Source: Acidobacteriota bacterium
Lineage (GTDB): Bacteria; Acidobacteriota; Aminicenantia; Aminicenantales; Saccharicenantaceae
Length of the DNA stretch: 5,294 bases
Direction: 5' to 3'
Assembly (NCBI GenBank): GCA_003476685.1
Contig: DMVN01000130.1
Coordinates: forward strand, 1-5,294
This document shows positions 1,507 through 5,294 of the stretch, in pieces (the stretch's first letter is position 1; every line of letters begins with the position of its first letter). The translations under genes were made by a program, and so were the position numbers. The notes beneath the pieces are model-generated. The model was not told where the DNA came from. It saw nothing but the letters and a program-made list of their open reading frames with translations, and searched no databases.

Positions 1507-2784
1507 ATGGAAAACAATACCAATGAGGAAAAGATCAGGGTGGTGAGTCCAACCGAGCGGGAACTGGACCTGGAAATTTCGGCTGAGACCGTCAAGAAGG
1601 AATACGAGAAAGTGCTCAAAGACTACGTGGCCCGGGTTAAACTGCCAGGCTTCCGTAAGGGCTATGCCCCCAGAGAAATGGTCCAGAAGATGTTCGAAGC
1701 CGAGATCAAGGAAGCGGTCCTGGATAACCTTATACCTGACAATTTGAGGCAGGAACTGGAGAATTTAAAAGTCGTCCCGGTCAACGTCCCGACGGTCAAG
1801 TCGGTTGATTTCAGCCTGGACCGAGGAGTCAGGTACCGGGTAGGTTTTGAGGTCTGGCCGGAATTTGAGCTGCCGCCTGATTATTTAGAGAAAAAGGTGC
1901 CCCGCGACCGGGTGGTGGTGGAAGAGGCTGAGGTGGAAACCGTCCTGAACAAGCTGCGGGAGAATGCGGCCGAATACCTGCCGGTTTCAGACCGGGGAGT
2001 CCAGTCCGGGGACTATGTGGTGATCGAGATCCAGGGCCGGGAAGTGGCCAGCAAGAAGTTCCTTCCTCTGGAAAAGGTAGTGGTCCTGGCCGGTCACACC
2101 GACAATGAACCCCAGCTCAATGATGTTCTGCCCGGTCTTAAACCCGGAGAACAGAAAACCTTCAGCGTCAAGTATCCCGATGATTACCAGCAAAAAAGGT
2201 TTGCCGGAAAAGAGATTGAATACCGACTAAAAGTTCTGGAGATAAAAGAGAAAAAATTGCCCGAGCTCAACGATGATTTTGCCAGGATGGTGGATGAGGT
2301 GAGCGGACTGGAGGCTCTCAGGGAAAAAATCAAGCAGGACCTGGCCAGGCATAAAGAGGAGGAAGCCAGGGACCGGGCCATCAACCAGTACCTGGAAAAG
2401 CTGGCCGCGGAAATCAACCTGGTCATTCCTGAGAGCATGGTCAAAGAGGAGGCTCAGGCCATCATCAGCCGTCAATTCCGGGAGGAAGAGTTGAAAAAGA
2501 TACCGGCTGACCTCTGGCCCCGGCTGCTGGAGCAGGCCCGGAAACAGGCTGAAAGCAGCCTGAAAAATCATATCCTGCTGCGGAAAGTGGCGGCCCTGGA
2601 GGGTCTGGACATAACGGCCGAGGAATTTGAGCAGGAATTGAAGAAAATCTCCGAGAACAGGAATATCCCCCTGGACCAGTTGAAAGCTGCCCTGGCCCGG
2701 GAAGACAGGGAAGATGACTGGAAGCTAAACCTTCTCCTGAGAAAAACGGTTGACTTTCTGGCCGGGAGGATTATAATAGAATAA
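1507..2784 (+). CDS. tig: Trigger factor (ribosome-associated chaperone)
   Basis: ATP-independent chaperone that binds at the ribosomal exit tunnel and shields new chains; the family also has peptidyl-prolyl isomerase (PPIase) activity. It has 425 residues, close to the 432 of the E. coli protein. The N-terminal ribosome-binding domain (about 1-125) has the signature loop LPGFRKGYAP at residues 46-55, with the F-R-K that contacts the ribosome. An FKBP-like PPIase domain follows at about 160-245, then the conserved linker LPELNDDFA (251-259) and the helical C-terminal chaperone arms (about 260-425), rich in charged residues and with VIPESMV at 306-312. In the PPIase domain the usual I-P-G-F-E stretch reads E-P-Q-L-N (201-205), so a key aromatic of the pocket is missing and isomerase activity may be weak. 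The start is set by the AAGGA site. Only 10 bases separate its stop from the ClpP-like remnant, which matches the usual tig-clpP order. Confidence 0.97.
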   Translation: MENNTNEEKIRVVSPTERELDLEISAETVKKEYEKVLKDYVARVKLPGFRKGYAPREMVQKMFEAEIKEAVLDNLIPDNLRQELENLKVVPVNVPTVKSVDFSLDRGVRYRVGFEVWPEFELPPDYLEKKVPRDRVVVEEAEVETVLNKLRENAAEYLPVSDRGVQSGDYVVIEIQGREVASKKFLPLEKVVVLAGHTDNEPQLNDVLPGLKPGEQKTFSVKYPDDYQQKRFAGKEIEYRLKVLEIKEKKLPELNDDFARMVDEVSGLEALREKIKQDLARHKEEEARDRAINQYLEKLAAEINLVIPESMVKEEAQAIISRQFREEELKKIPADLWPRLLEQARKQAESSLKNHILLRKVAALEGLDITAEEFEQELKKISENRNIPLDQLKAALAREDREDDWKLNLLLRKTVDFLAGRIIIE

Positions 2785-2794
2785 AGCTTCCCCC

Positions 2795-3265
2795 ATGGCC
2801 TTAATTCCTTTGATTGTTGAGTCTGAGGGCCTAACCGGACGCGGTTTTGAGATAAGAGGCAGCAAATATCAGCTGGTTAACGAAGGAAAAAATGACAGAG
2901 TCAGGCCAGAAAGCGTCCGGGAGCGAACCCCGAGAACTGAAGCTTGTGGAAAGGAAATTTCATCATACATAAATATACCTGGAGGTTGCCTCAAGACCGG
3001 CCGGGAGATTTATGATAATATGCAACGAGCAATCTTGGTTTTAACCTCGAACAGGCCGGGGTCAGAGCCGGCCCAGGACGGGGCCTGGTTAAATTCAATC
3101 GTAGCCCAAAAAACCCGGAATAAGCCGGTAGCCGGGCTATCCGGCCAGTCAGATAAAAAAATAAGGTCTCAGGCTGGAATTGATGTGTTCCTGACATCCT
3201 CCAGGGTGGGAAAGGTGAATCCCGGAAACCCGGTTAGTGTTTCCAGAAAGGACACTCTGGTCTAA
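2795..3265 (+). pseudogene. clpP: Decayed ClpP-like frame (clpP remnant or non-catalytic ClpP relative)
   Basis: A 156-codon open frame, 10 bases after tig, that reads as a broken ATP-dependent Clp protease proteolytic subunit. ClpP landmarks occur in order and in one frame. Residues 1-9, MALIPLIVE, match the ClpP mature start (MALVPMVIE in E. coli), with F-E-I at 18-20 matching F-D-I. Residues 53-77 contain KEI, YINIPGG and IYDNMQ, matching KDI, YINSPGG and IYDTMQ. Residues 93-99 (AQDGAWL) fall where ASMGAFL carries the catalytic Ser, here Gln94. Residues 116-134 (SGQ..KKI.....D.FLT) match the TGQ..KI....D.FMT tail, with Gln126 at the catalytic Asp place. The NSRIMIHQP region with the catalytic His is absent, which accounts for most of the missing 40-50 residues. 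There is no convincing ribosome-binding site, and the codons lack the CTG/GCC bias of tig and lon. Against a plain pseudogene, the frame has no stop and its gaps are net in frame, so a divergent inactive protein cannot be excluded. ClpP ancestry is inferred from position plus motifs recalled from the family. Confidence 0.66.
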
Positions 3266-3368
3266 ATGTCCGTTATTACTCGAGGAACAGATTACAATTA
3301 AAGGGAGGATAGCCACCGGGTAAATGGATGGTAGAATGGAGGCGAGAGGGAAATTATATTCAGGTAAC

Positions 3369-3373
3369 AGGAG
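3369..3373 (+). promoter_or_regulatory. Ribosome-binding site of lon
   Basis: AGGAG lies six bases before ATG 3380. It supports this start over later in-frame ATGs, and the N-terminal substrate-binding domain begins directly after it (LIPLRDLVVFP from residue 16). Confidence 0.75.
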
Positions 3374-3379
3374 TTTAAC

Positions 3380-5294
3380 ATGACTGAATCCCAGGAAAAC
3401 TCTGAACTCATAAAAAATATACCGCTCATACCGTTGCGGGACCTGGTGGTCTTTCCGGCTACCCTGGTGCCTTTTGTGGTCGGACGCCCCTCTTCCATCA
3501 AGGCCCTGGAAAAAGCCTATGAGAAGGACAAGCTGATATTCCTGGCCGCCCAGATGGATGCCGGCATAGATAATCCTTTGCCCCGCGACATTTACACTAT
3601 GGGAGTTACGGCCAGGATTATCAGGACGGCCCGGACTGACGAAAGGAATATGAAAGTAATCGTCGAGGGCCTCAACCGGGCCCGGATTGTGGAGTTCCTG
3701 AGCACCTACCCCTATTACCAGATCCTGGCCAAGGTGGTCAAAGAAATAGAGGATAACTCTCCCGAAACCCAGGACCTGCTCAAAAAAGTCCTGGCCCTGT
3801 TCGAGGAATACCTGAAGATAAATCAGAATGCCAGCCTGGATTCTATCATTCCCGCACTGCGTGAAAACAGCACCGATCGCATTGCCGACATCATTTCTTC
3901 CCATCTCTATCTGCCGCTCGAAGAAAAGCAGAACCTGCTGGAAACTCTTAACACCAGGGAAAGGCTGAACCGGCTGAAGTTCTTGCTCCAGGAATCGCTG
4001 GTTAATTTCATCGGCCGGGAAACCCCGCCCGGGACAACCCGAAAAAGGGGAGGGCACAAGGAAGGCGGGCAGAGAACCTTCATCCCCGGCGGTCAATTCA
4101 AGAAAGAAGAGCAACCCAACGAGATTGAAGACCTGAAAAGAAAAGTGGCCGAAGCCCAGATGCCGCCCGATGCCCACGACAAGGCTATGAAGGAAATCGA
4201 GCGCCTGGAGACCATGCCCCCGATGTCGGCCGAAGCTACCGTCAGCCGTAACTACCTGGACTGGCTGATTTCCCTGCCCTGGAACAAAAAATCAAGAGAG
4301 AAGAGAGACCTGAAAGAGGCTGAGAGAATCCTGAACGAAGACCATTATGGCCTGGAAAAGGTCAAGGAAAGAATCCTGGAGTACCTGGCCATCCGGCAGC
4401 TGGTTAAGAACCCCAAGGGCGTCATCCTGGCCTTTATCGGACCGCCGGGTGTGGGCAAGACCTCCCTGGGCAAATCCATTGCCCGGGCCACCGGGCGGAG
4501 GTTTGTCCGGCTGTCGCTGGGCGGCGTCAGGGATGAGGCTGAAATCCGGGGACACCGCCGAACCTACATCGGGGCTTACCCCGGTCGCATCATCCAGATG
4601 ATAAAAAGAGCTGGCACCAAAAACCCGGTCTTTTTGCTGGACGAAGTGGACAAGATGAGCATGGATTACCGGGGCGACCCGGCCGCAGCCCTGATGGAAG
4701 TCCTGGACCCGGAACAGAACAAGGAATTTCTAGACCATTACATAGATACCGACTTTGACCTGTCGCAGGTGATGTTCATCGTCACCGCCAACTCCATCGA
4801 CCCCATTCCCAGGGCCCTGCTGGACAGGATGGAGGTCATCCGGCTGCCCGGCTACACCGAGGACGAGAAAGTCCAGATTGCCAAACAGTTTCTAATTCCC
4901 AAGCAGCTTAAAGCCCATGGCCTGACCGCTAAAAACCTGGAATTCACCGAACAGGCCATCCTGAAAATCATCAGGGACTATACCCGGGAAGCCGGGGTCA
5001 GAAACCTGGAGCGGGAAATCACTTCCATCTGTCGCAAGATGGTTAAAAAGGTGGTGACCAAAGGCAAGGATTACCACGAAAAACTTACCCCCAAAGCGGT
5101 GGAAAATTACCTGGGCATTCCTAAGTACCGCCGGCTGGAAATCGACCGCCAGGATGAGGTGGGCGTGGCCCTGGGTATGGCCTGGACCGAGTTCGGCGGT
5201 GAGCTGCTGACCTTTGAAGCCACCAAAATCCACGGCAAGGGCAACCTGATGCTCACCGGGCACCTGGGTGAAATCATGCAGGAATCAGCCCAGG
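3380..5294 (+). CDS. lon: ATP-dependent Lon protease (LonA), 3' partial
   Basis: Cytoplasmic AAA+ serine protease that unfolds and degrades misfolded and regulatory proteins. The frame is open from ATG 3380 to the window end (638 codons plus one base), about 80% of a typical LonA. The N-terminal LON domain covers about 12-205 (LIPLRDLVVFP, VEGLNRARIVE). MPPMSAEAT...YLDWLISLPW lies at 279-301. The AAA+ module has Walker A GPPGVGKT (354-361), the LGGVRDEAEIRGHRRTYIG segment, Walker B VFLLDEVD (417-424) and the arginine region RALLDRME (478-485). The protease domain starts near 590, with AWTEFGGE at 601-608 and LTGHLGEIMQESAQ at the edge; the catalytic Ser-Lys pair would be about 40 residues further on and is not seen. 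Residues 207-246, where other LonA proteins have a helical QREYYLxEQxKAIQKELG motif, are instead rich in Gly, Pro, Lys and Arg. The gene lies downstream of tig and the ClpP remnant, with 114 bases in front, so it may have its own promoter, but none is convincing. Confidence 0.97.
   Translation, partial: MTESQENSELIKNIPLIPLRDLVVFPATLVPFVVGRPSSIKALEKAYEKDKLIFLAAQMDAGIDNPLPRDIYTMGVTARIIRTARTDERNMKVIVEGLNRARIVEFLSTYPYYQILAKVVKEIEDNSPETQDLLKKVLALFEEYLKINQNASLDSIIPALRENSTDRIADIISSHLYLPLEEKQNLLETLNTRERLNRLKFLLQESLVNFIGRETPPGTTRKRGGHKEGGQRTFIPGGQFKKEEQPNEIEDLKRKVAEAQMPPDAHDKAMKEIERLETMPPMSAEATVSRNYLDWLISLPWNKKSREKRDLKEAERILNEDHYGLEKVKERILEYLAIRQLVKNPKGVILAFIGPPGVGKTSLGKSIARATGRRFVRLSLGGVRDEAEIRGHRRTYIGAYPGRIIQMIKRAGTKNPVFLLDEVDKMSMDYRGDPAAALMEVLDPEQNKEFLDHYIDTDFDLSQVMFIVTANSIDPIPRALLDRMEVIRLPGYTEDEKVQIAKQFLIPKQLKAHGLTAKNLEFTEQAILKIIRDYTREAGVRNLEREITSICRKMVKKVVTKGKDYHEKLTPKAVENYLGIPKYRRLEIDRQDEVGVALGMAWTEFGGELLTFEATKIHGKGNLMLTGHLGEIMQESAQ

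What the first reader, a model, noticed from the sequence alone, without database searches (positions are those of the whole stretch)
2795..3265. ClpP remnant with all three catalytic positions lost, between tig and lon
The frame after tig carries ClpP landmarks in the correct order: MALIPLIVE, YINIPGG, IYDNMQ and SGQ..KKI....D.FLT. The aligned catalytic Ser is Gln94, the aligned Asp is Gln126, and the His region is missing. ClpP is nearly universal in bacteria outside Mollicutes, so its decay at its ancestral site would be a notable lineage event. A gene finder would probably call this a hypothetical protein and miss the relationship.
Basis: partly seen in the sequence, partly recalled or inferred. 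Interest (0 to 1): 0.8.

Follow-up and report, generated by a model that had tools for sequence, protein, structure and literature searches.

The report
Dead clpP marks repeated ClpXP loss
The stretch between the genes tig and lon in this uncultivated Aminicenantes bacterium is a worn-down remnant of clpP, part of a protein-shredding machine found in most bacteria; its partner gene clpX is gone from the same spot, and 40 of 94 surveyed genomes of the same order show neither gene intact, so the whole machine was likely lost several times in this group, with other proteases such as Lon likely covering for it.

Summary
The ORF at 2795-3265 is a decayed clpP at its ancestral site. Close relatives carry tig-clpP-clpX-lon; here, in G002 and in G007 the order is tig, clpP remnant, lon, with about 31 nt resembling the end of clpX in front of lon. 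Between G000 and G002 the remnant evolves much like neutral DNA (omega 0.53, neutral expectation 0.76-0.78, P 0.10-0.12; tig 0.05, lon 0.03).

One detail was wrong: the Ser and His stretches are missing, but the catalytic Asp aligns with Asp130, not Gln126.

The larger finding: 40 of 94 genomes of the order lack intact clpP and clpX (53 have both, 1 a clpX fragment). In 32 of the 40, tig and lon sit side by side with both genes missing or reduced to remnants. Outside the order 3 of 185 sampled genomes lack clpX. The tree needs several losses, at least four if the genes are never regained. A promoter-like sequence inside the last tig codons is kept in 78 of 80 tig ends, 32 of 32 after loss, so the remnant is probably now the lon leader. 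The ssrA tag keeps its VAA/LAA end in 20 lost and 29 kept genomes: no Mycoplasma-like tag change.

The parts
1507..2784 (+). tig (trigger factor), 425 aa
   Evidence: Trigger_N E 4.4e-30 and Trigger_C E 1.6e-18; 96% identical in G002
2750..2777 (+). sigma-70-like promoter TTGACT-16-TATAAT inside the last tig codons; probably the ancestral clpP-clpX-lon promoter, now in front of the remnant and lon
   Evidence: 11 of 12 consensus matches; at least 10 of 12 in 78 of 80 tig ends, 32 of 32 clpPX-lost and 46 of 48 kept; silent positions nearly fixed. Function inferred.
2795..3265 (+). clpP remnant (pseudogene): start and stop of clpP kept, Ser and His stretches missing, frame open by chance or by weak constraint
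2989..3025 (+). 37-nt block invariant in G000, G002 and G007 inside the remnant; function unknown
   Evidence: 1 of 20,000 column shuffles gave a run as long (shuffling assumes equal rates along the remnant); no unusual RNA fold
3348..3378 (+). likely remnant of the clpX 3' end holding the lon ribosome-binding site
   Evidence: 19-23 of 31 positions identical to the clpX ends of five intact relatives; of 548 other 31-nt stretches upstream the best reaches 18, mean 9.6; invariant in G000, G002 and G007
3380..5294 (+). lon (ATP-dependent protease La), cut by the window's end
   Evidence: LON_substr_bdg E 1.4e-40, AAA, Lon_lid and Lon_C matches

Best explanation
The ORF at 2795-3265 is a decayed, almost certainly inactive clpP left between tig and lon in a Candidatus Saccharicenans (Aminicenantes) lineage that has likely lost the whole ClpXP protease. 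Shown: homology, place and the missing Ser and His stretches; clpX absent between the remnant and lon; the same remnant in two relatives; the promoter-like sequence in the end of tig kept with or without clpPX. Inferred: the 31 nt before lon are the last of clpX; that promoter once drove clpP-clpX-lon and now drives lon, with the remnant as its untranslated or idly translated leader. Inferred and only weakly tested: ClpX was the main or only Clp unfoldase in this order, so decay of one operon abolishes Clp proteolysis, and Lon (two matches in most genomes), HslUV and possibly FtsH (not searched) take over, including disposal of ssrA-tagged proteins whose tag is unchanged.
For: Synteny: intact relatives have tig-clpP-clpX-lon with 1,865-1,957 nt from tig to lon; here 598 nt, G002 537 nt. 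DNA alignment through the remnant. Near-neutral evolution: omega G000-G002 0.53 (bootstrap 0.30-0.995) against a neutral median of 0.76-0.78, P 0.12 and 0.10; codon-position differences 16/13/20 over 135 codons; tig 0.051, lon 0.033, five intact clpP pairs 0-0.052. G007 has a 2-nt shift and an in-frame TAA. A search of 5.8 billion proteins returns, besides the window's own, one relative, identical to the G002 reading. clpP and clpX vanish together: 53 both, 40 neither, 1 clpX fragment only, of 94. Stages of decay elsewhere: G013, G074, G020, G006, others erased. Promoter-like sequence: 78 of 80 tig ends; Val codon GTT in 64 of 64 that have Val there (23% elsewhere in tig; the other 16 have Ile ATT), GAC 78 of 80 (49%), ATA 72 of 80 (20%) (genomes are related, so not independent).
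Against: The frame is open for 156 codons here and 136 in G002, and the net length change is a multiple of three. Neutral simulation leaves a frame open in 15-17% of cases for the G000-G002 divergence and in 1.6% after 200 changes from intact clpP. For G000-G007 omega 0.74 lies below the neutral median 0.88 with P 0.042, from only 24 open simulations; G002-G007 gives 0.81 against 0.84, P 0.45. So weak constraint is not excluded. The 2-nt shift of G007 is on a 2.9-fold contig and may be an error. One 37-nt block is more conserved than chance. The window's genome is 79.8% complete. A spare ClpC is not excluded: the Clp_N search missed the control B. subtilis, which has ClpC (recalled). Promoter use and proteolysis were not measured.
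Confidence: 0.9

Rival explanations
1. The ORF is a fast-evolving but working small protein made from clpP, for example a catalytically dead partner or a new function.
For: Frame open in G000 and G002, with a 60-nt in-frame deletion in G002; omega 0.53 is below the neutral median, and G000-G007 gives P 0.042 on 24 simulations; 37-nt invariant block; the G002 protein is recorded on 7 contigs.
Against: G000-G002 and G002-G007 omega are not different from neutral (P 0.10-0.12 and 0.45), codon positions differ about equally, G007 has a frame shift and a stop, one homologue found, and clpX, the partner of ClpP, was not found in G000, G002 or G007.
Confidence: 0.07
2. The remnant is kept as an RNA or DNA element: its start, the 37-nt block and the clpX tail serve as leader and control region of lon, and the open frame is kept so that translation protects the leader from early termination of transcription.
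For: Promoter-like sequence kept after loss in 32 of 32; a clpP-like start (ATG soon followed by CCC) is kept in 14 of 14 lost f6 genomes examined, against 4% of shuffled leaders, and clpP starts are seen in G006, G013 and G074; 37-nt block; 12 of 13 g4 genomes have a predicted hairpin at the lon ribosome-binding site.
Against: No unusual fold in the two pieces of the window's leader tested; G006 and G007 have stops or shifts; shared ancestry alone may explain the kept starts; most other lost lineages keep only 48-200 nt.
Confidence: 0.3
3. Missing genes are an artefact: incomplete or misassembled metagenome bins.
For: Window genome 79.8% complete; 8 of the 40 genomes cannot be checked across the whole tig-lon junction.
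Against: The same junction lies on a 295-kb contig of G002; in 32 of 40 genomes tig and lon are side by side on one contig with both genes missing or reduced to remnants; 14 of 45 good genomes of the order against 3 of 185 sampled outside it lack clpX.
Confidence: 0.03

Closest known systems
ClpP (Pfam PF00574, NCBIfam TIGR00493), tig-clpP-clpX-lon gene order
   Same: Place, start and stop, landmarks, residual profile match
   Different: Below every curated cut-off that it was scored against; Ser and His stretches missing; evolves near neutrally; clpX missing
Loss of ClpP in Mollicutes
   Same: ClpP lost in a bacterial group while Lon remains (the Lon part is recalled)
   Different: The lost genomes here are bins of 1.4-3.5 Mb, loss is repeated within one order with decay stages preserved, HslV is found in 35 of the 40 lost genomes, and the ssrA tag is unchanged. 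A passage of PMC6600665 says ClpP is absent in archaea and mollicutes. The Mycoplasma tag change and Lon preference are recalled, not read.
Bacterial pseudogenes in operons
   Same: Near-neutral decay, promoter-like sequence and downstream ribosome-binding site kept
   Different: Of a nearly universal protease gene, with the co-operonic unfoldase lost together with it

Membership tests
ClpP protease | Whole-length profile match over curated cut-off | tested here: not met
   PF00574 19.1 bits against 20.2; TIGR00493 26.9 against 308.6. Caution: most intact relatives also stay just under the TIGR00493 cut-off (7 of 94 genomes over it).
ClpP protease | Catalytic Ser and His | tested here: not met
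   Both fall in missing stretches with four gap costs
ClpP protease | Catalytic Asp | tested here: met
   D172 of G014 aligns with Asp130; lost in G002
ClpP protease | Purifying selection | tested here: not met
   G000-G002 omega 0.53, not distinguishable from neutral (P 0.10-0.12); G000-G007 P 0.042 on 24 simulations; intact clpP pairs 0-0.052
ClpP protease | Partner unfoldase in the genome | tested here: not met
   No clpX match at 1e-40 in the own genome, G002 or G007; own genome incomplete; ClpC not well tested
clpP pseudogene | Orthologous position to intact clpP | tested here: met
clpP pseudogene | Disruptions or large deletions in orthologous copies | tested here: met
   Missing Ser/His stretches in G000; 60-nt deletion in G002; 2-nt shift and TAA in G007, a low-coverage contig
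clpP pseudogene | No working product | not testable with these tools
   Needs proteomics or expression

The most novel reading that the evidence does not exclude
An order of bacteria with ordinary-sized genomes has shed its Clp protease again and again through one operon, because ClpX was the sole partner of ClpP. Each loss leaves the clpPX promoter driving lon, so ClpXP loss automatically rewires the cell to Lon- and HslUV-based proteolysis and to a Lon- or HslUV-cleared ssrA tag that never had to change. The clpP debris is put to use as the lon leader.
Probability: 0.3. Interest if true: 0.75.

Novelty: new variant of a known kind. Interest (0 to 1): 0.6.

Why it matters
ClpXP is usually treated as near universal outside Mollicutes. 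An order in which 40 of 94 genomes have neither gene intact, with intact, dying and erased stages side by side, offers a natural series for asking what makes ClpXP dispensable and what clears ssrA-tagged and other ClpXP substrates without it. The unchanged tag is a contrast to the Mycoplasma case (recalled) and makes the question directly testable with purified Lon and HslUV of these bacteria.

Tried and rejected
Tag change as in Mycoplasma: rejected. Tags were read in 49 of 50 loci (30 of 30, 19 of 20), taken from the 50 of 60 relatives with a tmRNA match over the cut-off. 20 are from clpPX-lost genomes (3 of them, G001, G008 and G047, not checked at the site) and 29 from clpPX-kept ones; all are 8 residues and end in VAA or LAA. 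G000 and G007 gave no full tmRNA.

Selection on the ORF: not shown, and not fully excluded. A second clpP elsewhere in G000: none found. PF00574 alone is a poor test in the order: 49 of 60 relatives have some match over its low cut-off, many in frames of 280-580 aa that I take to be other members of the superfamily (not scanned). One lost genome, G053, has a 200-codon ClpP-family frame (79 bits) away from the site that does not reach 1e-15 with TIGR00493; I did not identify it.

A spare ClpA or ClpC: none recognised, but the test is weak. 

One single loss for all: not compatible with the tree. The AU test rejects G000, G002, G007, G006 and G013 as one clade (p 2.1e-7). But G000+G002+G007+G006 as one clade is not rejected (p 0.256), nor are the 13 or 15 lost f6 genomes (p 0.63 and 0.55), so 8 changes on the quick tree of 84 rows is not a firm count. 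Four rows (G001, G047, G072, G091) were dropped before that count; with them it was 12 on 88 rows. 6 of 94 genomes had no usable tig or lon among the stretches that I fetched and are in neither tree; G093 was labelled kept.

RNA structure in two pieces of the window's leader: nothing unusual. Rfam: only a tRNA in the window. Paper searches showed nothing on ClpP or ClpX loss in Aminicenantes; searches returned no paper, one unrelated paper, and searches listed 15 of 32 and 12 of 116. I read one passage; the others I saw only as listings.

Full report
What the window is. The window is the whole 5,294-base contig C14 of an Aminicenantes bin of 1.93 Mb, 79.8% complete, 1.2% contaminated. Its nearest named relatives by trigger factor are 'Candidatus Aminicenantes bacterium' MAG-74 (96%) and Candidatus Saccharicenans bins (82-91%). 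It carries a TPR protein cut at its start, a tRNA-Leu, tig, the ORF in question and the first 638 codons of lon.

The ORF is clpP. Pfam finds PF00574 at E 0.0013, just below its cut-off; NCBIfam finds TIGR00493 at E 3.5e-6 over residues 2-78. In the same genus 12 of 18 relatives have a full clpP directly after tig: G003, G004, G005, G009, G010, G011, G012, G014, G015, G016, G017 and G018. The DNA aligns from the clpP start to its stop. The start region 'AAAGCTTCCCC-ATG-GCC' is nearly identical to that of the intact genes. The Ser and His stretches are missing. The catalytic Asp has a counterpart, Asp130, contrary to the finding.

clpX is gone too. Intact relatives have clpX between clpP and lon, its stop 1 nt before the lon start in the five clpX ends printed. 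Here only the last 31 nt before lon still resemble the end of clpX: 19-23 of 31 identical to five intact relatives, while 548 other 31-nt stretches upstream reach 18 at most (mean of best 9.6). They hold the lon ribosome-binding site. G002 and G007 share the remnant and the junction.

Dead or alive. Between G000 and G002 the remnant has omega 0.53 (bootstrap 0.30-0.995), tig 0.051, lon 0.033. Unconstrained simulations that happen to stay open give a median of 0.76-0.78, and 12% and 10% of them are as low as observed. Differences are spread about evenly over codon positions (16, 13, 20). G000-G007 gives 0.74 against 0.88 (P 0.042, but only 24 open simulations) and G002-G007 0.81 against 0.84 (P 0.45). 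G007 has a 2-nt shift and an in-frame stop, but its contig has low coverage (2.9-fold by its title), so this may be sequencing error. Against a plain pseudogene: the open frame in two species has odds of 15-17% for the last step and 1.6% after 200 neutral changes from intact clpP. The finding was also picked because the frame is open. A word-based search of 5.8 billion proteins finds one relative besides the window's own, identical to the G002 reading and recorded on 7 contigs.

How common is it. In the order, 94 genomes including G000 were searched. clpP (TIGR00493, 1e-15) matches in 54, one of them the broken copy of G013, so 53 are intact. clpX (1e-40) matches in 54, one of them (G093) a fragment at a contig end without clpP. 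So 53 have both, 1 has a clpX fragment only, and 40 have neither intact. One of the 40, G053, has an unidentified 200-codon ClpP-family frame elsewhere (79 bits to PF00574). Among genomes at least 90% complete and at most 5% contaminated, 14 of 45 lack clpX. In a sample of the phylum (197 genomes, completeness filter 90 plus G000, threshold 1e-60), 12 belong to the order, 3 of them without clpX (G000, G021, G022); of the other 185, 3 lack clpX (14 of 45 against 3 of 185, Fisher P 8e-9). The two sets are not filtered in exactly the same way, and related genomes are not independent. In 32 of the 40, tig and lon are neighbours on one contig with both genes missing or reduced to remnants. The remaining 8 are G013 (contig ends in the remnant), G085 (contig begins 134 nt before lon), and G001, G008, G047, G072, G079 and G091, which could not be checked.

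Stages of decay. G013: 119 residues at 50% identity, one TAA. G074: first 37 residues. G020: last 35 residues of clpX. G006: no match at 1e-3, but the clpP start is visible, followed by many stops. In all 13 genomes of genus g4 and in 13 of 14 lost f6 genomes examined no clpP or clpX piece was found at 1e-3. In those 14 of 14 f6 genomes an ATG soon followed by CCC, as in the clpP start, still stands after the promoter (4% of shuffled leaders).

How many losses. On a tree of joined Tig and Lon (84 rows) the fewest changes are 8. The AU test rejects a single clade for the lost g1 members G000, G002, G006, G007 and G013 (p 2.1e-7) but not for G000+G002+G007+G006 (p 0.256) or the lost f6 genomes. 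I take at least four losses as supported, provided that the genes are not regained: G000's group (perhaps with G006), G013, g3+g4, and f6. Whether G020 and g4 share one loss was not tested.

What remains. HslV is found in 87 of 94 genomes and in 35 of the 40 lost ones; lon is found in 93 of 94, two matches in most. G000 itself has two lon matches, the second cut by a contig end, and no HslV match in its incomplete bin. FtsH was not searched. No Clp_N protein other than ClpB was recognised, but only two were identified, and the search missed B. subtilis among its controls, so ClpC could be missed. That ClpX was the only Clp unfoldase, which would explain why clpP and clpX vanish together, is therefore a weakly tested inference.

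The promoter. A scan finds TTGACT-16-TATAAT (11 of 12) at 2750-2777, inside the last tig codons; 3 promoter-like sites were found in the region against 0.9 expected. The same motif (at least 10 of 12) is in 78 of 80 tig ends examined, 32 of 32 with clpPX lost and 46 of 48 with clpPX kept. The codons under it are nearly fixed in their silent positions, far beyond tig's own usage. This is DNA-level conservation. That it is the clpPX-lon promoter, and that the remnant is now the lon leader, is inferred.

The ssrA tag. tmRNA tags were read in 49 of 50 loci. All are 8 residues and end in VAA or LAA, in 20 lost and 29 kept genomes alike. Thus no tag change follows the loss; which protease clears tagged proteins is open.

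Verdict. An ordinary pseudogene by itself, but a marker of an unusual and repeated loss of ClpXP. No listing in the searched library connects Aminicenantes with ClpP loss (searches; two searches were seen in part).

Noticed in passing
window 2750-2777 and 80 tig ends: A near-consensus promoter embedded in the last tig codons, with silent positions nearly fixed across the order (GTT, GAC, ATA).
   Followed up: yes
window 2989-3025: 37-nt block invariant in three species inside otherwise drifting remnant DNA; function unknown.
   Followed up: partly
lon leaders of 12 of 13 genus g4 genomes (L127-L133, L135-L138, L154): After clpPX loss the short lon leader carries a predicted 6-bp GC hairpin directly before the GGAG ribosome-binding site and a second 7-bp hairpin; 3 of 17 predicted pairs show changes on both sides, but the covariation term is only -0.01. 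No Rfam match there in the 6 loci scanned. Three single-sequence folds are not unusual.
   Followed up: partly
tmRNA loci L075-L123: All 49 tags read are only 8 residues (such as AEPVAVAA), very short for ssrA tags (recalled).
   Followed up: no
G031:C26:1213-5742: Two Lon sequences lie head to tail in one 1,570-codon open frame; real fusion or assembly artefact.
   Followed up: no
G053:C54:29791-30201: A ClpP-family frame of 200 codons (PF00574 79 bits) in a genome without clpP-clpX at the usual site; below 1e-15 with TIGR00493. Not identified.
   Followed up: no
G155, G175, G268: Three of 185 sampled genomes outside the order also lack clpX; a genome with the same genus code has it for G155 and G268.
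   Followed up: no
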